From a virus: 30,201 nt of DNA. The DNA is taken from IMG/VR virus record IMGVR_UViG_3300035698_005496, positions 1 through 30,201 of that record. One strand, 5' to 3'. The position numbers and the translations under genes were made by a program. Below, one piece after another: positions 1,063 to 17,399 of the stretch (its first letter is position 1; each line of letters begins with the position of its first letter). A model generated the notes under the pieces. That model worked only from the letters and a program-made list of their open reading frames with translations, was not told the DNA's origin and ran no database searches.

Positions 1063-1722
1063 TTAAGCCCTCACATTCTTTGTTGCCGTTAACACATGAC
1101 CATCCTTTGTTAATATTTGTCCTGGTGTTGGTGATGTTACAACATATCCACCGCCCGGACCTATAACAACTTTATCTCCTGCATCTATCCTAACGACTTT
1201 ATCAGAGTGTATTGTGATTTCTCCTTCTTCATCTGCCACAATTTTAACACCCAGTCTTTGTTTATATACCATCTCACCAATGCGGCGATTAATAACTAGA
1301 TAATCTCCTTCGTCTAGTTCAAAAAATACCATGCTGTCTGGATAATCTGTACCTCTGAGCTTTGAAATAGTATTAGTATCAATTATCTTATCGGTAAAGT
1401 GGGGGAAATAAATATCTCCCTTTTCAAAATAAACACCAACTAAAGTGCCAACGGGCGGAACTATAAAGGATCCAATTGTACTACCAACAAAATTCTTATC
1501 ATTAAATGCCCAAGGAATATCTTTATCAGAAACATCATTGCCATAAATACCAAAGACTCTTATTCTACAACGACCAAGTTCATCTGGATCATTATTATCA
1601 ATAACCCGACCAACATAATCGTCGAGCAATCTATCTTCATGTTCATCTAAAAACTCTGTCATTACAAACGAAAGAGGATCTGATAATCTAGTTCTAAGTG
1701 TTTCTTCTAATCTAATCGCCAT
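1063..1722 (-). CDS. Baseplate spike protein with gp5-like OB fold
   Basis: A 219-residue spike protein. Residues ~35-110 look like the OB-fold domain of T4 gp5 and gpV: YVGRVIDNNDPDELGRCRIR, IPWAF, and FIVPPVGTLVGVYFEKGDIY. The C-terminal part has repeating beta strands (EITIHSDKVVRIDAGDKVVI) like the start of the spike beta-helix. It lacks the lysozyme domain that T4 gp5 carries between these parts; the M15 peptidase on the tape-measure protein may stand in for it. The start overlaps closely with the hub gene stop (one base between them) with a weak ribosome binding site, so coupling is likely. Confidence 0.82.
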   Translation of the reverse strand: MAIRLEETLRTRLSDPLSFVMTEFLDEHEDRLLDDYVGRVIDNNDPDELGRCRIRVFGIYGNDVSDKDIPWAFNDKNFVGSTIGSFIVPPVGTLVGVYFEKGDIYFPHFTDKIIDTNTISKLRGTDYPDSMVFFELDEGDYLVINRRIGEMVYKQRLGVKIVADEEGEITIHSDKVVRIDAGDKVVIGPGGGYVVTSPTPGQILTKDGHVLTATKNVRA

Positions 1723-1723
1723 A

Positions 1724-2905
1724 TTATTCTGTCACTCTATATTGTTTTACATCTTGAGATTTGTTCATTCCATTTCTATGAAGCGATACCATCTTTTTGT
1801 ATATACCATCCTTTGATACCTGATGTGTTATTCCACCAACCAAATAATTCCCGCTCATTACTTTATTAGGACCATCATCAAAATTCGACGGTACACTCAA
1901 ATTTATTTTATCAAACAGGTTTATATCATTTCTAGCATCAACATTTATAACAAGAGAGAACGCAAAGAAATTATTTAACAAGAAAGGATTGCGCGCTAAC
2001 GATTCAAAATATCCCCCGTAAACATTCTCTGTATAAAAATGGCCCGATTCCGAAAAAACATCTTGGCCCGCATACTCTTTATCTGTAAAAGATAACTGTG
2101 TCAACTTTTCAGGGGTACTAACGCTTCCTGTCTTTTCTGATCCATTTAAATCATAATACTCATAAGATCCACCATAGCCGGTTGTCTTATTATAATAACC
2201 ATTAAAATTTACAATATCATATTGATTGTACCAAATGGTTTTATCTTTATCATCTATTTCATTTTCAAACATTACTTGATCGAGTTTGGCTATTCTACTT
2301 TCCTTTTTATTCATTTCTGCATGAAGAGATGTATATACAAATTTAGATTTAGAATTGGCATAAAATATTGGAAGATCGTCTGATATACTAGCCCTATTTA
2401 AAATATGACGAATGAATTTATAATTATTACTACACTGTAACCAAGTCATCGTATCGGTCGGTATAACATTTAAAGGATTTGTAAATGGTAAATCAACTTC
2501 TTCTGATATAGTTTTTAAAACACTAACAGAATTTTGCTTTCTAAAACTTCTACTATGGCTCGGAGTAAACATTGAGCTGACTTTAAGATGGCCAGACATT
2601 TCAACAACAATTTGTTTATTATCACTGACCTGATTGACTTTGTAATCGCTAAGAAGAAAAGTCATCGTTAATGCATTTTTATCTTGGTCTGACTTGCCGA
2701 TCGTAACTTTTATTTCATCGTTGTCTTCTAACGGCAATCTTTCGATCATTGTTCCGTCATCAACGTATGTTAATTCTAAACGGGGGAGTATGTCTATTAC
2801 CCATTCACGTATCACCAAATTCAGTACATTTGCGCCTGTATATCTTTGTCCTTGAATTACTAAATCTAATAGAAAGTTTTGTCCTGGTAATTGTACTGAT
2901 GGCAT
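1724..2905 (-). CDS. Baseplate hub protein, gp27/gpD-like
   Basis: A 393-residue protein with the general layout of hub proteins of the gp27/gpD family, which form a trimeric ring below the tail tube and hold the spike. The beta-rich N-terminus (LLDLVIQGQRYTGANVLNLV, IDILPRLELTYVDDG, TMTFLLSDYKV) and the SVLKTISEEVDLPF and MTWLQCSNNYKFIRHILNRA segments in the middle resemble the gpD-type tube domain and helix pair. It precedes an OB-fold spike gene, as expected for a hub-spike pair. GAGG precedes the ATG. The family call is by order and pattern. Confidence 0.72.
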   Translation of the reverse strand: MPSVQLPGQNFLLDLVIQGQRYTGANVLNLVIREWVIDILPRLELTYVDDGTMIERLPLEDNDEIKVTIGKSDQDKNALTMTFLLSDYKVNQVSDNKQIVVEMSGHLKVSSMFTPSHSRSFRKQNSVSVLKTISEEVDLPFTNPLNVIPTDTMTWLQCSNNYKFIRHILNRASISDDLPIFYANSKSKFVYTSLHAEMNKKESRIAKLDQVMFENEIDDKDKTIWYNQYDIVNFNGYYNKTTGYGGSYEYYDLNGSEKTGSVSTPEKLTQLSFTDKEYAGQDVFSESGHFYTENVYGGYFESLARNPFLLNNFFAFSLVINVDARNDINLFDKINLSVPSNFDDGPNKVMSGNYLVGGITHQVSKDGIYKKMVSLHRNGMNKSQDVKQYRVTE

Positions 2906-2914
2906 TTATCAACC

Positions 2915-3232
2915 TCACTGTTTGCTTTGCACATTTAAGTACCAATCCTCGATATCTCCAAGGCTAGGAACGTTTACTATATCACCAACAGCAACATCAT
3001 TCCACCAGTCCTGAATATTATTTATCTTAGCTACGATCCACCAATAATCAGTAACACCATAAAACTTTAAAGAAAACAAATCGGGCCGGGCTATAAAGCT
3101 TCTGGCCATCGTTGCGAAAGTCATCGGTCGTTTAATTTTAAAAAGATCCCAATTAGTTAATAACAAGTCTCTTTCTTTAACGCCATCAACATTTTCTAAT
3201 TCCATAAAATTTGATCTATTATATTTTGCCAT
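2915..3232 (-). CDS. LysM-like baseplate protein (gp53 / gpX type)
   Basis: A 105-residue protein with an N-terminal basic segment and a C-terminal LysM-like part: FYGVTDYWWIVAKINNIQDW followed by VAVGDIVNVPSLGDIEDWY. Such domains occur in T4 gp53 (baseplate wedge) and in the small gpX-type proteins that link tube and hub in other contractile tails. Its place between the tube cap and the gp27-like hub fits the second group best. TGGAGA precedes the ATG. The fold is suggested by pattern only. Confidence 0.7.
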   Translation of the reverse strand: MAKYNRSNFMELENVDGVKERDLLLTNWDLFKIKRPMTFATMARSFIARPDLFSLKFYGVTDYWWIVAKINNIQDWWNDVAVGDIVNVPSLGDIEDWYLNVQSKQ

Positions 3233-11001: not shown

Positions 11002-12663
11002 TCATATAATATCAGTAATTTCGTTTCCTTCATCAAATATCATAACCGGCATAGCGTTTGGATCGAAATCTATTTTATATTTATCATCAATTGTTTTAAC
11101 AGAAAGGTCTCTACCTTCAAAATAATCTGTGATAATAAAGTATAATGCCCATAGCAAACTAGTCACACAATCATCATGATCATTACGTCCCGCCTTAAAA
11201 ACATTTGGGGTTGCTTCCTCATATCTGCTCAATTCATATATTGTACGCTTATCAACTATTTTTAACCACGACTTCTCCATATAATCTTTGATAAGTAAAC
11301 AACCATCTAGCTTAGTTTTTCTATGAGATCTTATCCCTAATCCCTTTGGATCAACATTTATAAGATTTTCATTTTCATATTCATACCAAATAGCATCACA
11401 GACAGAAGAACCAATATCATTGTTTTCTACCATCATCGGCGCGCCACCATAAAAATCTGAAATAGAAATACAAACTTGAGCAAAATCTCTGGCATTAATC
11501 AAATTGTTTCTATACATCGCTACTTGTTCTATATCTTGAAGATTAGATATTTTTAATACTTGTATAACAGAATAATCTTTTCCTGTGCCCTTTGCAGAAT
11601 CAATTCCTAATACATAAAGCGTACTTGGTTCTGGAGATTTATAAATTTGAAATAAACCATTCCATTTCATTGATATAGGATCTGCTGGTATTATTCTCTC
11701 TAATACATCTCCATCTACAAGTGTTGAAGAGCTCCCTAAAAACTTACAGGAATACTCTTGAGCAAATCTAACTGGGCCACCAATAGCCGCAATTGTTTCT
11801 TTTTTCCATTGTTCATCTCTACCTGGGACTTCCCACCAGCCGACAAAGATAGGAAAGAAATTACTCTTACCGCGCACAGCATCCATCCAGAAATCATAAA
11901 AATGGTTCAGACCGGTCGGTGTTGATATTATTATAATCTTAGATGTAGTACCACTTGAGATAACAGGATATGTGGCAGTAATAAATTCTTCTGCGATGTG
12001 AGGTTTAACTTTAGCAAACTCATCCATGTACAATAAATTTACAGAATCACCAGAAATTGAATCAGATGAAGTAGATGCTGCTATTGCTTTAGTACCATTA
12101 CCCAGACTGATCGATTTTTTGTTCCAGCCGCCCTCTTCTATTCCCTGTTGCATCCACAATGGAATCATTTTATATGCGAGCTTAATTCTATCTAATATCT
12201 TAATAGCAGTAGGTTCTTTATTAGCAAGTATAGCAACGTACTTATCTTTATGAAATAAGATGTACCACAATATATAAATTGTAGAAACTGTTGTGTTATG
12301 CGATAATATATCATTCGTATACAATGTATGAGTATCTGAATCTACTGTTACATCAAACATCTCTTCTGGTTCTAATTCTAATTTTTTAACAGAAATTACC
12401 TTTTGTAAACCAGTTCTAGTTATTACTCTATCATCTTCTGTTAAATCCTTTACAAACTTTTGCTTAAAACCATCAACCATTACTATATGATCATCAGCAC
12501 ATTTTAAATCACAACTAAATGTTTTTAATTCCCAAACATCATACTTAATCGTTTTATGTAAATGTGTTATATCTTTCCAACCCGATTCAGTCTCTATTTC
12601 CCATTCATCTAATTCATATGATTCAATAAATTTTTCATCGATCGGTTCAATTTTTTGTGCCAT
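11002..12663 (-). CDS. 17: Split-intein C fragment fused to large terminase C-terminal part
   Basis: A 553-residue ORF. Residues 1-123 are the intein C-terminal piece: a block B-like LKCADDH (His59; the usual Thr or Ser three residues earlier is Ala56) and a block F ending HTLYTNDILSHN (His122, Asn123). Thr124 is the first extein residue, and TTVSTIYILWYILFHKDK continues the Walker A of T4 gp17. Walker B is LLYMDE (Asp214-Glu215), the coupling motif is STPTG (247-251), and the nuclease acidic residues are Asp355 in GIDSAKG, Glu413 in VENND, and Asp497/Asp498 in HDD. Trans-splicing with the 93-residue piece would give about 523 residues. The start overlaps the endonuclease gene by 17 bases with no strong ribosome binding site, so translation may be coupled. 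Confidence 0.92.
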   Translation of the reverse strand: MAQKIEPIDEKFIESYELDEWEIETESGWKDITHLHKTIKYDVWELKTFSCDLKCADDHIVMVDGFKQKFVKDLTEDDRVITRTGLQKVISVKKLELEPEEMFDVTVDSDTHTLYTNDILSHNTTVSTIYILWYILFHKDKYVAILANKEPTAIKILDRIKLAYKMIPLWMQQGIEEGGWNKKSISLGNGTKAIAASTSSDSISGDSVNLLYMDEFAKVKPHIAEEFITATYPVISSGTTSKIIIISTPTGLNHFYDFWMDAVRGKSNFFPIFVGWWEVPGRDEQWKKETIAAIGGPVRFAQEYSCKFLGSSSTLVDGDVLERIIPADPISMKWNGLFQIYKSPEPSTLYVLGIDSAKGTGKDYSVIQVLKISNLQDIEQVAMYRNNLINARDFAQVCISISDFYGGAPMMVENNDIGSSVCDAIWYEYENENLINVDPKGLGIRSHRKTKLDGCLLIKDYMEKSWLKIVDKRTIYELSRYEEATPNVFKAGRNDHDDCVTSLLWALYFIITDYFEGRDLSVKTIDDKYKIDFDPNAMPVMIFDEGNEITDII

Positions 12664-13822
12664 TTATAAATTCCATACACTCGTTTATTACTCTTTTAGA
12701 ATCCTTATTGTAATCCATTTCTTTAACATGAAAAACATCAATACCCCTTTCATTAATTTCAACATCTCTCAAATCATCTCTAGTTCTATTTCCTCGACCT
12801 ATTATACCATGCCAATAAGTACCATCAAATTCTATACATTTATTTATATCATCAATATAAAAATCTAAAGATCTAGTTGTTTTATTAGTTTTTAATCTAA
12901 ATTCTTTATTTTTATTTTCAATTTTATTGCCATTAAATAAAGTAGCAAAGTATATATTTTTATATTCACATTTAATCATTTTATATATTTCCCAAAATAA
13001 CTCTTGACTAACATTAGAATAATTTTGTTTTGGAAAATTTTTCAACCATTTGGCCTGTCTCTCTTGCCATCTTTTTAACCCAGCCTCTTTACCATACTTT
13101 TTAATACAAATATCTTTACTAAACGTCGTCTGATAATTTTTAAGTTTTTCTCTTGCTTCTATTTCATTATACCCCTTCTTAATCCAATGCTCTATTCTTC
13201 TAGGAGAAATTGTTTTGTCGTTTTTATACGTCGTAATTATAGATTTCCTAGCTCTTTTATCTCTATCTGTATTCTCATTATACCATCTTACATTGCAATC
13301 TTTATTATAACAAAAATTTTTATACCCCTCAGTAAACGAATGAAATTTTAATTTTTTACCACAATATTTACAACAATCAAGTTCTTCTTTTAACATTAAA
13401 TATTTTATATAATACTTTTCTATGTTAATATCTGGATGAAAACTTCCTAAGTGCTGTCTCAACCCGCCCTTTGTTTCATATCCAACATGACAAATTTCAC
13501 ATTTATATTTAATAGATTCTTTTTTGTTATAACTTTGATAGTGCTGTAAATTACAAAAACTACCGGAATATCTTTTGTATGGTAATATTTCATCACAATA
13601 TTTACATTTTATTTTACCAAAAAGATATTCATTATAATAATTTTCTATACAAATTTCTTTATGACATTTAGTAATATGGCACAATAAACTACTCAATTTA
13701 TCAGATCCGCGGCCGCAAATTTCACACCTATATCTTAATTGATCTGGGTGACAAATGGCAATATGATCTCTTAATCTTCTTTTAGTTTTAAATTCCTTTT
13801 CACAAACTTCACACTTAAACAT
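12647..13822 (-). CDS. Putative homing endonuclease between the split-intein halves: C2H2 zinc fingers plus Vsr-like nuclease
   Basis: A 391-residue protein. The N-terminal half holds three classic C2H2 zinc fingers with CX2CX12HX4H spacing (Cys4-His25, Cys33-His54, Cys108-His129) and further CxxC pairs near residues 73-76 and 151-154. The C-terminal ~80 residues carry a Vsr-like core: RSLDFYIDD (Asp320), IEFDGTYWHG (Glu331, His338) and GIDVFHVKEMDYNKD, similar to the endonucleases found between split-intein halves in fractured genes. The ATG at 13822 is 8 bases after GGAG; an in-frame TTG two codons upstream is less likely. The 3' end overlaps the TerL C-terminal ORF by 17 bases. It probably cuts unbroken terminase alleles near the Walker A codons, which is inferred from its place. 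Confidence 0.87.
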   Translation of the reverse strand: MFKCEVCEKEFKTKRRLRDHIAICHPDQLRYRCEICGRGSDKLSSLLCHITKCHKEICIENYYNEYLFGKIKCKYCDEILPYKRYSGSFCNLQHYQSYNKKESIKYKCEICHVGYETKGGLRQHLGSFHPDINIEKYYIKYLMLKEELDCCKYCGKKLKFHSFTEGYKNFCYNKDCNVRWYNENTDRDKRARKSIITTYKNDKTISPRRIEHWIKKGYNEIEAREKLKNYQTTFSKDICIKKYGKEAGLKRWQERQAKWLKNFPKQNYSNVSQELFWEIYKMIKCEYKNIYFATLFNGNKIENKNKEFRLKTNKTTRSLDFYIDDINKCIEFDGTYWHGIIGRGNRTRDDLRDVEINERGIDVFHVKEMDYNKDSKRVINECMEFINGTKN

Positions 13823-13857
13823 AAACAAAACTCCTCGATTTAATTTTTACCTATAAG

Positions 13858-13865
13858 TATTTATA
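13858..13865 (-). promoter_or_regulatory. TATAAATA late promoter box inside the fractured terminase locus
   Basis: A perfect match on the minus strand in the 90-base gap between the TerL N-terminal gene and the endonuclease gene, 35 bases before the endonuclease ATG. It would transcribe the endonuclease and the TerL C-terminal gene together. Confidence 0.65.
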
Positions 13866-13866
13866 T

Positions 13867-13886
13867 AAAAACACATACCTATATGT
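13867..13886 (-). terminator. Possible weak terminator after the TerL N-terminal gene
   Basis: The minus strand has a 5-bp AT-rich stem (ACATA with TATGT) with a TAGG loop, followed by G and five T residues. The stem is short, so termination would be partial at best. It lies just upstream of the late promoter of the endonuclease gene. Confidence 0.3.
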
Positions 13887-13912
13887 CATAAAAAATTAAA
13901 TATATGAAGTTT

Positions 13913-14293
13913 TTATTTATTTTTAATTTGCTTATATAGCTCTCCTATCATTATTTCTTTAATTTCACCCGTATTTTTGTTTTTTATTTTTACCAAAGTA
14001 TCATTAAAAAAACATTTTCCTGCTTGGCGAGAGATTCTTAGAATACAGTGCCTAGTTTTTTTAGGTGGGTCCACAAGAGTATTCAGGGGCGGATCTATAT
14101 AAGCTTTAAGAATTTTCTTTTGGAAATCGTACAAAGGAATTTTCTTTTTTCCTTCGTCCAATGTAACAATATAAAAATATTTCTCTGCAAAATAAATTAT
14201 ATCTTCTTTACATCTAATTAATTCCTCTAACATTTCCTTTGAGTATTCTGTCTTTTCATTGGCAGATCTCAATTTAGCATTACCTAAGTACAT
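13913..14293 (-). CDS. 17: Large terminase N-terminal piece fused to split-intein N fragment
   Basis: A 126-residue ORF in two parts. Residues 1-93 are the start of a T4 gp17-type large terminase: FAEKYFYIVTL, YDFQKKIL and LRISRQAGK, which is the Walker A loop cut just before its Thr. Residue 94 is a Cys opening an intein block A (CFFNDTLVKIKNKNTGEIKE), and the intein piece stops after only 33 residues. The missing remainder (intein C fragment and TerL from TT on) is encoded at 11002-12663, after an endonuclease gene. The piece alone lacks a complete P-loop and should have no ATPase activity. AAGGAAA precedes the ATG. Very short N fragments are known from the AceL-TerL type of split intein. 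Confidence 0.9.
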   Translation of the reverse strand: MYLGNAKLRSANEKTEYSKEMLEELIRCKEDIIYFAEKYFYIVTLDEGKKKIPLYDFQKKILKAYIDPPLNTLVDPPKKTRHCILRISRQAGKCFFNDTLVKIKNKNTGEIKEIMIGELYKQIKNK

Positions 14294-14302
14294 TCAATTT
14301 CC

Positions 14303-15529
14303 TTAGGACGCGTATTTTTGAACTAACCTCTTCCAATTTGGGCTATCACTTTCCCTTATTTTAAGAGCCTTAGTAAACGTCCTCATATTCATTTCACCTT
14401 CACCAAATTGATCTTTCATGTCTTGCATATATTTAAAAACTTCTTGTTTTACTTTCATACTAACTTCAGGCATAATGTCTTCTAAAATAGATTTAATTCT
14501 AAGAAGCATATCTTTAGCCTTTAAAGTAACATCAACAGCAAACGATCTTGATAGTATAGCCTTATTCATTTTCCTTTTGTGAATATTAGAAATGAAAATT
14601 ACTTTACCATTGAATCTAAACTTACTAGGAAGCTGGCCCGAGTCTTCAATTTTATCTTCTATGTCATATTCATCCATTCCATCTGGATTAAAAGTGTTTC
14701 TAGATATCCATGAGATCTCTCTTGGCTCATCAGAATCAAGAGCGGCCTTAAGAATATTAACACCATTAGGATCTTTGAAAACAGAATCGGCATCATCATA
14801 AACTATCAACTTGTTTCTATTATCATACAAAGTTCTATACATACCCAATGGAGTAGAATAACCCTTTACCCTTAACCAATCTTCACCAGAATTCAAACCA
14901 GCATCCTCGATCGCTTGTTTAACCAAATACGATTTTCCGGATCCAGGCATACCAGTTATAAGAAGAGACGGTTGTATATCATCTAATACCATCTGAACCA
15001 AATCATCTAAATCTTTATAAACTGTTTCTGGGTCTGCATATATTTTCTTATCTAATTTTGCTTGGGCATCTTCTGTATCAATAGCTTCTTCTGGTTGTCC
15101 TTTGTTAACCTTTACTCTGGCCTTGGCTTCATTAACACCCTCTTCAACTTCTGGTTCAGTTTCCATTTCGAATTCACCGATCGTTGGTTTTTTAAGTTGG
15201 TTAATAATAGTTGGAATTATTTTAACAATTGACATTCCTTGTGTTGGTATATTAACAGATGGACTTGAATTATTAGTAGCATCCCAAATGTCAACAGAAA
15301 TTATTTCATTCTTGTTATTAAAATTAAATCTAACAGCCTGTACAGTATTCCCTATAAAATATTTAAGGCCTGCACCAGCTCCTTTAGAATTCTTATATTG
15401 ATCAACTCCATGATATTGATACAAGGATTGACCTAATTGTTTTTCAATTGTCGTTTTAATTAATCCTGCTGCCCGTTGAAGATTCTTTTCAGCAAAGGCT
15501 TCTAAAAAATAATGATCTAAAAACTTCAT
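14303..15529 (-). CDS. AAA+ ATPase, placed between small and large terminase genes
   Basis: A 408-residue protein with an N-terminal region of unknown fold (residues 1-115), an acidic linker (~118-160) and a P-loop ATPase domain (~165-345). Walker A is TGMPGSGKS (192-200), Walker B LIVYDDAD (241-248), a sensor-1-like Asn is in IFISN (311-315), and Arg328 in ILSRSF is placed as an arginine finger. The C-terminal helical part (~345-408) fits an AAA+ lid. It is not a terminase: it has no nuclease motifs and the large terminase is next door. Possible roles include remodelling a virion or packaging complex, or a DNA-handling step late in infection. AGGAG precedes the ATG. Function is unproven. Confidence 0.82.
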   Translation of the reverse strand: MKFLDHYFLEAFAEKNLQRAAGLIKTTIEKQLGQSLYQYHGVDQYKNSKGAGAGLKYFIGNTVQAVRFNFNNKNEIISVDIWDATNNSSPSVNIPTQGMSIVKIIPTIINQLKKPTIGEFEMETEPEVEEGVNEAKARVKVNKGQPEEAIDTEDAQAKLDKKIYADPETVYKDLDDLVQMVLDDIQPSLLITGMPGSGKSYLVKQAIEDAGLNSGEDWLRVKGYSTPLGMYRTLYDNRNKLIVYDDADSVFKDPNGVNILKAALDSDEPREISWISRNTFNPDGMDEYDIEDKIEDSGQLPSKFRFNGKVIFISNIHKRKMNKAILSRSFAVDVTLKAKDMLLRIKSILEDIMPEVSMKVKQEVFKYMQDMKDQFGEGEMNMRTFTKALKIRESDSPNWKRLVQKYAS

Positions 15530-16466: not shown

Positions 16467-17399
16467 TTAACTTGTATTAGATGCGCTTGTAGATCTAAAC
16501 CAATCAAACTTCACATCTACACCATCATCACCAACATAATATCTATCTTCATCATAATTTCCACTTGTATCATATGACGCACTTGTTACCCACTCTCCAC
16601 CATAATTTCCAGATGTTGAATATTCATCTGATGATGGACCAGCGCTTGTTACTAATTCTCCTGCTGAGGTCTGATATCCTGATGTTGAATATGAATCCGT
16701 AAATACATCAGTATCACCAACATAATATCTAGTATTAATAACTTTAATTATCTGTGAGTATGTCCAAGGTCTATACATATAAGCATGAACCGTAAAATTT
16801 AACTGTCCATTCACATACCTATCGTCCGGGTTGGCCATGTCTTCGGCGAATTCAGGCACAACACTATCAAGCGTCACATGTAAATCTCGTTCTATATTAA
16901 GAAACGAAAATTCTTTTACTCTTAGATCCAACGCAGGATTAAAATAAGGCAAAATGTTTTCCATTATCTGAGCAAATTTATCGAGCGAGTCACTACGAAC
17001 ATATAATGTAAAATTCAAATCATAGGGAGTTGGTTGGTAATCAGCAAAGGTTTCTAATATATCAGAGCCGCTTGTCTCAAGGCTTGTCTGTAACCAATAT
17101 CTCCATTCATTAACTCCATATGCTCTATCTGGATTGTACGATATACCATTTAACAAAACGGCCATGCGAGGTATCATCATATAGAATCTATCACCATGCT
17201 CGTTATTTTCACGATCATAATAATGATCTTCAGTTCTATCTTGATGATATTTCTCTACGGGGCCAAACTGCAATGGTACAATATCTGTACTTAAAGCATT
17301 ACCGCTGACATCATACTTCTTAATAGATATGTCATTAAACATATCCATAAAAGCAATAACAACATTCTTTATTGTTTTAGGATAATAATATTTTTGCAT
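16467..17399 (-). CDS. 15: Tail terminator / sheath stabiliser, T4 gp15-like
   Basis: A 310-residue protein whose first ~225 residues follow T4 gp15, the hexameric ring that caps the finished tail tube and sheath and binds the neck. Matching landmarks in order: an N-terminal YYPKTIKNVVIAFMDMFNDI segment, PRMAVLLNGISYNPDR, the QPTPYDLNFTLYVRSDSLDK block, QIMENILPYFNPALDL, and an RDLHVTLDSVVPEFAED segment. The last ~80 residues are a Ser/Thr/Gly/Tyr-rich low-complexity tail with repeated TSG/TSA units (YSTSGYQTSAGELVTSAG, YSTSGNYGGEWVTSAS) and two YYVGD motifs, absent from T4 gp15. The ribosome binding site is modest (AAGAGAT). Confidence 0.88.
   Translation of the reverse strand: MQKYYYPKTIKNVVIAFMDMFNDISIKKYDVSGNALSTDIVPLQFGPVEKYHQDRTEDHYYDRENNEHGDRFYMMIPRMAVLLNGISYNPDRAYGVNEWRYWLQTSLETSGSDILETFADYQPTPYDLNFTLYVRSDSLDKFAQIMENILPYFNPALDLRVKEFSFLNIERDLHVTLDSVVPEFAEDMANPDDRYVNGQLNFTVHAYMYRPWTYSQIIKVINTRYYVGDTDVFTDSYSTSGYQTSAGELVTSAGPSSDEYSTSGNYGGEWVTSASYDTSGNYDEDRYYVGDDGVDVKFDWFRSTSASNTS

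What the first reader, a model, noticed from the sequence alone, without database searches (positions are those of the whole stretch)
11002..14293. Fractured large terminase: split intein inserted in the Walker A loop
Seen: one ORF ends TerL at RISRQAGK and adds Cys plus 32 intein-like residues; another ORF opens with 123 intein-like residues ending HN and continues TTVSTIY. Joined, the exteins read as the complete T4 gp17 P-loop, and Walker B, coupling and nuclease motifs all follow in order. Known: split inteins in TerL with very short N pieces (AceL-TerL type) and fractured genes with endonuclease ORFs occur in environmental DNA. Inferred: the packaging motor exists only after trans-splicing.
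Basis: partly seen in the sequence, partly recalled or inferred. Interest (0 to 1): 0.88.

Follow-up and report, generated by a model that had tools for sequence, protein, structure and literature searches.

The report
Phage packaging motor gene in pieces
A T4-like phage carries its DNA-packaging motor gene as two separate genes whose protein products are very probably stitched together by a split self-splicing insert sitting in the ATP-binding loop, with a selfish DNA-cutting enzyme gene between them; this is a new example of a known arrangement that turns out to be common in environmental phages.

Summary
On the minus strand: TerL residues 1-93 plus a 33-residue intein N-piece (14293-13913), a 391-residue homing endonuclease gene (13822-12647), then a 123-residue intein C-piece plus TerL residues 94-523 (12663-11002). 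Joined exteins fit a profile of 79 intact TerLs without a gap across Walker A, GK|TT (376 bits joined; 58 and 302 apart). The C-piece models as an intein fold (pLDDT 94.5; VidaL, gp41-1, Cat). The endonuclease domain's best structural match is I-Bth0305I.

Relatives make trans-splicing the best explanation. I found 33 distinct TerL loci split at this loop, one natural fused version, and cis versions in Ackermannviridae. In the cultured Vibrio phage vB_VmeM-32 the two halves lie 77 kb apart on opposite strands with no other TerL. Splicing itself was not tested.

It is not the AceL/GOS-TerL insert, which lies at another TerL site that is empty here. It is a new member of the known 'fractured gene' kind. 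More interesting is its surroundings: the same split-intein and endonuclease family also sits in Walker A loops of gp41-like, gp46/SbcC-like and AAA genes, and some relatives' TerL carries two or three inteins.

The parts
14015..14293 (-). TerL N-extein, residues 1-93, ends ...RISRQAGK (first half of Walker A)
13913..14014 (-). Intein N-piece (IntN), 33 aa CFFNDTLVKIKNKNTGEIKEIMIGELYKQIKNK plus stop; atypical split after the first helix (S2-type position, by alignment)
   Evidence: S2 definition PMC13014065
12647..13822 (-). Homing endonuclease gene, 391 aa from an ATG with GAGGAG upstream: C2H2 zinc fingers, KKGY/RQ..KYG modules, C-terminal EDxHD/Vsr-type nuclease (I-Bth0305I fold); its 3' end overlaps the next start codon by 17 bases
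12295..12663 (-). Intein C-piece (IntC), 123 aa ending ...NDILSHN; Hint fold
11002..12294 (-). TerL C-extein, 430 aa starting TTVSTIY: rest of Walker A, Walker B (LLYMDE), coupling motif (STP), nuclease domain

Best explanation
The large terminase gene of this T4-like phage is a fractured gene. Two polypeptides, TerL(1-93)-IntN and IntC-TerL(94-523), are made from separate ORFs; IntN and IntC bind and fold into a class 1 intein (Cys1, terminal His-Asn, Thr+1), which excises itself and joins Lys93 to Thr94, restoring the GKTT ATP-binding loop. The gene between them encodes an I-Bth0305I-type homing endonuclease which, by analogy with known homing endonucleases, cuts intein-free TerL genes at the Walker A codons so that repair copies the whole intein-endonuclease block in. 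Shown here: anatomy, homology, intein and endonuclease folds by prediction, purifying selection, recurrence in independent phages, and dispersed halves in a cultured relative. Inferred: association, splicing, and cutting at the empty site.
For: Exact healing of TerL at GK|TT and 79 related TerLs with an unoccupied site. IntC model matches inteins (VidaL 1.1 A over 101 columns). IntN + IntC align over their full length with cis inteins of Ackermannviridae TerL at the same codon, and one relative of the same family, L125, has both in one ORF. G28, A56, D57, H59, H122, N123 of IntC invariant in 36 sequences. IntC dN/dS about 0.08-0.11 against close relatives. Census: 33 distinct TerL loci split here, 27 with endonuclease sequence between the halves. 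Vibrio phage vB_VmeM-32: N half at 79947-80624 (-), C half at 1102-3216 (+), and no other TerL match. Huge phage LR756500 has the same three-part order. Endonuclease domain: I-Bth0305I Z 11.3, Vsr Z 10.1. Endonuclease genes range from full length to remnants to absent, as a homing cycle predicts. IntN, IntC and endonuclease GC 0.20-0.29 vs TerL exteins 0.32-0.34.
Against: No biochemical evidence. The block-B Thr of classical inteins is Ala here (A56 of CADDH), although VidaL, described as active, also has Ala there. The window is only 30 kb. The start of the IntC gene has a weak ribosome site and may need coupling to endonuclease translation. Tree evidence that this particular intein moved between TerL lineages is suggestive only: intein data reject the extein placement (p=0.0006), but extein data do not reject the intein placement (p=0.24).
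Confidence: 0.9

Rival explanations
1. RNA-level splicing: a group I or II intron carrying the endonuclease joins the two TerL exons, as reported for ICP1 terL (PMC10448857).
For: TerL genes can carry self-splicing introns next to endonuclease genes (PMC10448857).
Against: No Rfam intron match at gathering or at E<=1 in 12200-14400. The flanking 33 + 123 codons are conserved intein coding sequence under purifying selection and exist as one uninterrupted ORF segment in cis relatives. In vB_VmeM-32 the halves are 77 kb apart on opposite strands.
Confidence: 0.03
2. Two-subunit terminase without ligation: the pieces bind each other and work as a heterodimer, as in the genes-in-pieces NrdA of phage Aeh1 (known case), the intein remnants serving only as glue.
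For: Such a case exists for ribonucleotide reductase (Friedrich 2007, cited in PMC3322345). IntN and IntC would associate in any case.
Against: The break falls between Lys and Thr of the ATP-binding loop, which has to be continuous to hold phosphate. Terminal HN and block-B H are invariant in 36 C-pieces and Cys1 is kept in the joined set, which only splicing requires.
Confidence: 0.04
3. Broken, non-functional TerL (pseudogene) or assembly chimera.
For: The record is a metagenome fragment.
Against: Full-length ORFs, low dN/dS, same arrangement in dozens of independent contigs, a related split TerL in the cultured phage vB_VmeM-32, and no spare TerL in ten large records.
Confidence: 0.02

Closest known systems
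Fractured genes with split inteins and freestanding endonucleases (Dassa et al. 2009, NAR 37:2560)
   Same: Essential phage enzyme gene cut at an active-site codon by a split intein, with an endonuclease gene between the halves; endonuclease of the Vsr/EDxHD fold.
   Different: Target gene and site: TerL Walker A, with an atypically short N-piece. The Dassa text was not available here; its content is from my own knowledge and from citing papers.
AceL-TerL and GOS-TerL split inteins (Thiel 2014; Bachmann 2015)
   Same: TerL host gene, atypical split with short IntN (25 and 37 aa), split after the first helix (PMC13014065).
   Different: Other insertion site (+1 Cys; QEF.|C.FLG by inference); IntC profile nearer to VidaL than to Cat; here +1 Thr in Walker A.
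VidaL split intein (PDB 6vgv)
   Same: Best sequence-profile match of the IntC family (E=9e-12) and close fold (1.1 A); atypical split.
   Different: VidaL IntN is 16 aa and splits at S1 (PMC13014065); here 33 aa at S2.
Mycobacteriophage TerL1-a intein (Kelley 2016, PMC5050341) and Ackermannviridae TerL inteins
   Same: Insertion between the invariant Lys and Thr of TerL Walker A.
   Different: Those are in cis, in one ORF; here split with a separate endonuclease gene.
I-Bth0305I homing endonuclease (PDB 3r3p)
   Same: Nuclease domain fold, Z 11.3 over 97 residues.
   Different: N-terminal C2H2 zinc fingers here; split-intein partner here, intron partner for I-Bth0305I (own knowledge); target untested.

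Membership tests
Fractured gene with split intein | Conserved enzyme gene interrupted at the same codon where relatives are continuous | tested here: met
   (79 intact TerLs)
Fractured gene with split intein | Both flanking pieces encode complementary parts of one intein | tested here: met
   (fused relative L125)
Fractured gene with split intein | Freestanding endonuclease gene between the halves | tested here: met
Fractured gene with split intein | Protein trans-splicing activity | not testable with these tools
   needs co-expression
Class 1 intein | Cys/Ser at position 1, block-B His, C-terminal (His-)Asn, Cys/Ser/Thr at +1 | tested here: met
   C1, H59, H122-N123, T+1
Class 1 intein | Thr/Ser at block-B position 7 (TxxH); common in the class rather than strictly required | tested here: not met
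   Ala56 in CADDH, invariant Ala in 36 C-pieces; VidaL also has Ala there and is described as fast splicing, so it does not exclude activity or class 1
Atypically split intein, S2 position | Short IntN (about 15-35 aa) ending after the first helix | tested here: met
   33 aa; split loop located by alignment to cis inteins; definition PMC13014065. The helix itself was not modelled
AceL/GOS-TerL intein allele | Same insertion site in TerL (+1 Cys) | tested here: not met
   Window site b is empty (FAQEYSCKFLGSSST); site b C-piece of L008 matches Cat best; AceL/GOS +1 Cys from PMC11766414
EDxHD (I-Bth0305I/Vsr-like) homing endonuclease | Nuclease-domain fold | tested here: met
   Z 11.3 (3r3p) and 10.1 (1cw0)
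EDxHD (I-Bth0305I/Vsr-like) homing endonuclease | Cleavage of the intein-free allele | not testable with these tools
   needs a cleavage assay; D320, E331, G334, H338, E368 invariant in 16 sequences
T4-type large terminase | ATPase and nuclease motifs in order | tested here: met
   alignment to gp17; Pfam Terminase_6N and 6C over cut-off

The most novel reading that the evidence does not exclude
One lineage of atypically split intein with its zinc-finger EDxHD endonuclease has colonised the Walker A codons of at least four unrelated P-loop ATPase genes of T4-like and huge phages (TerL, gp41-like helicase, gp46/SbcC-like, an AAA protein) by jumping between genes at the same short protein motif, so that a large share of environmental T4-like TerLs are made from two or three trans-spliced pieces.
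Probability: 0.45. Interest if true: 0.62.

Novelty: new member of a known kind. Interest (0 to 1): 0.48.

Why it matters
It adds dozens of naturally split inteins with 33-56 residue N-pieces and Thr or Ser at +1, useful for protein labelling. Natural controls are at hand: split, fused and dispersed versions of one gene, and endonuclease genes from intact to lost. It also means that annotation pipelines looking for one TerL ORF miss or truncate TerL in many environmental T4-like phages; in some relatives it is in three pieces.

Tried and rejected
Group I/II intron: no Rfam match (only a sub-threshold preQ1 match inside TerL-N coding sequence, taken as chance). Homing shown for the window itself by tree conflict: the extein data reject the four-row intein clade {window, L108, L109, L114} (p=2e-6), but much of that conflict is not the window's: after leaving out L113 and L114 the extein data no longer reject window+L108+L109 (p=0.24), so this is reported as suggestive. 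Bacterial/archaeal genome scan with the IntC alignment found nothing. One search of the cis LAGLIDADG intein used wrong coordinates and was replaced by Pfam.

Full report
WHAT WAS CLAIMED AND WHETHER IT IS THERE. Both are exactly where stated. On the minus strand, 14293-13913 encodes 93 TerL residues ending RISRQAGK followed by Cys and 32 more residues; 12663-11002 encodes 123 residues ending LSHN followed by TTVSTIY and 423 further TerL residues. The joined extein is 523 residues and the joined intein 156. The N half matches T4 gp17 at E=7e-12, the C half at E=1e-60, with Walker B, the coupling motif and nuclease residues aligned in order. A profile of 79 intact TerLs from other contigs scores 58 bits for the N half, 302 for the C half and 376 for the joined protein, with no gap at RQAGK|TTVS; shifting the junction by one to three residues costs 2-7 bits. 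Neighbouring genes are T4-like: tail sheath stabiliser 16467-17399 upstream, then tail sheath and tail tube downstream.

THE INTEIN. The C-piece passes NCBI's intein C-terminal motif. A profile of 36 relatives matches VidaL (E=9e-12), gp41-1 (1e-8) and the Cat consensus (5e-6) in the PDB. Its model (pLDDT 94.5) matches inteins only in the top ranks, VidaL at 1.1 A over 101 columns. Joined IntN+IntC aligns end to end with the cis inteins of Ackermannviridae TerL, which sit at the same codon (308 phage records hold an IntC-like match). The split lies in the loop after IntN's predicted helix, between ...ELYKQIKNK and ...DEKFIES, where the cis forms read ...HDKFVDS. By the definition in PMC13014065 this is the S2 atypical split, as in AceL-TerL and GOS-TerL. 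Residues needed for class 1 splicing are present: Cys1, the block-B His, the final His-Asn and Thr at +1. The block-B Thr is Ala, as in VidaL.

THE GENE BETWEEN. The 391-residue product has C2H2 zinc fingers at its N-terminus and a C-terminal nuclease domain whose best structural matches are the homing endonuclease I-Bth0305I (Z 11.3) and Vsr (Z 10.1) (model pLDDT 82). D320, E331, G334, H338 and E368 are invariant in 16 relatives. Its gene has a good ribosome site and overlaps the IntC start by 17 bases. The closest homologue in the annotated phage records (41.6% identity, a 462-kb uncultured phage) lies between TerL halves too.

WHY TRANS-SPLICING. (1) Recurrence: scanning viral contigs with the IntC alignment gave 80 loci. 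Among distinct ones, 33 TerL loci are split at this loop, 27 with endonuclease sequence between the halves, and one (L125) is fused in a single ORF. (2) Constraint: IntC dN/dS is about 0.1 against close relatives. (3) Dispersal: in Vibrio phage vB_VmeM-32, a cultured phage, the N half follows the small terminase gene at 79947-80624 on the minus strand, while the C half precedes the tail sheath gene at 1102-3216 on the plus strand. No other TerL match exists in that genome. RNA splicing in cis cannot join these. (4) No spare intact TerL was found in ten large or complete records. (5) No intron model matches.

MOBILITY. Endonuclease genes run from full length through remnants (77 aa in L108, 50 in L109, 44 in L118, several broken pieces in L181) to none (L112, L115, L119, L120, L172), the pattern expected of a homing cycle. 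Intein and extein trees disagree: extein data reject the clade that the inteins of window, L108, L109 and L114 form (p=2e-6). For the window alone the case is weaker: intein data reject its extein placement (p=0.0006), but extein data do not reject its intein placement (p=0.24). Caulobacter phage Cr30 has an endonuclease of this family directly upstream of an intein-free TerL.

COMPARISON WITH THE KNOWN. TerL inteins at Lys|Thr of Walker A are known in cis (TerL1-a of mycobacteriophages, PMC5050341). Atypically split TerL inteins are known (AceL-TerL, GOS-TerL; PMC11766414) but use Cys at +1. In relatives of the window a second split intein at QEF.|C.FLGS has Cat as its best solved match, so I infer that AceL/GOS-TerL belong to that second site, which is empty in the window. 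Fractured genes with Vsr-like endonucleases are known (Dassa 2009, not held here; cited by PMC6892783, PMC10448857 and others). The window is therefore a new member of a known kind. I found no paper in the searchable library that describes a split intein at TerL Walker A, but most subscription papers are not in it.

WHAT IS MORE UNUSUAL AROUND IT. The same intein and endonuclease family sits at Walker A of gp41-like DnaB helicases, gp46/SbcC-like genes and an AAA gene; the intein tree needs at least five changes of host gene, though deep support is weak. In L002 and L008 TerL is in three pieces with two split inteins (L009 has the first two pieces before its contig ends); in L003-L005 one TerL holds a split intein, a LAGLIDADG cis intein at the coupling motif and the N-piece of another split intein. 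These raise the interest of the family above that of the single case.

Noticed in passing
L002 3431-6816; L008 3407-6413; L009 3492-4987: TerL in three pieces: split intein at Walker A and a second split intein at QEF.|C.FLGS, with a second endonuclease gene (phrog_3339) after the middle piece in L002. In L009 the contig stops before the third piece.
   Followed up: partly
L003 2319-6826 (also L004, L005): One TerL gene with three inteins: two split and one LAGLIDADG cis intein at the coupling motif (S|TP); L006 and L017 have the cis one too.
   Followed up: partly
L013 4668-5345 and L104 1102-3216 (KU160494, vB_VmeM-32): TerL halves 77 kb apart on opposite strands; the C half also has a cis mini-intein in Walker B (YVDE|C...SHN|CAF). 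By eye, UvsX and a gp41-like helicase of the same phage are also split, with endonuclease ORFs between the pieces (L107).
   Followed up: partly
L188 4485-8771 (Campylobacter phage CP21): TerL with a cis intein near Walker A, a split intein with an endonuclease gene, and a cis intein at Walker B. The related phage IBB_35 paper (PMC3322345) explained the break as an intron; a split intein looks likelier.
   Followed up: partly
L106 2859-7354 (huge phage LR756500): Same fractured TerL with a Gln-ending intein (ILSSQ|TICSS), followed by a second short TerL-like ORF.
   Followed up: partly
L122 4293-4988 (also L121): A second, 231-aa TerL ATPase-like ORF (phrog_5989) lies between the endonuclease and the IntC-TerL gene; role unknown.
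   Followed up: no
L105 3974-6704 (Caulobacter phage Cr30): Endonuclease of this family directly upstream of an intact, intein-free TerL whose Walker A reads RQSAKSTT, perhaps a resistant target.
   Followed up: no
L125 4006-5379: Single-ORF fused version of the same intein with an internal Met where split relatives start IntC, perhaps a re-fusion after endonuclease loss.
   Followed up: partly
L130, L133, L140, L141 (gp46/SbcC); L134, L135, L154, L159, L161, L175, L178, L183 (gp41-like); L162, L177 (AAA): Same split-intein family at GK|S/T of other P-loop ATPases, with endonuclease sequence of the same family between the halves in all but L175.
   Followed up: partly
L009 3088-3540: Intein-C-like ORF without the final His-Asn, directly upstream of TerL-N; orphan or decayed (judged by eye only).
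   Followed up: no
window 14303-15529: 408-aa AAA-type ATPase (phrog_1250, unknown function) directly upstream of TerL-N in the packaging cluster.
   Followed up: no
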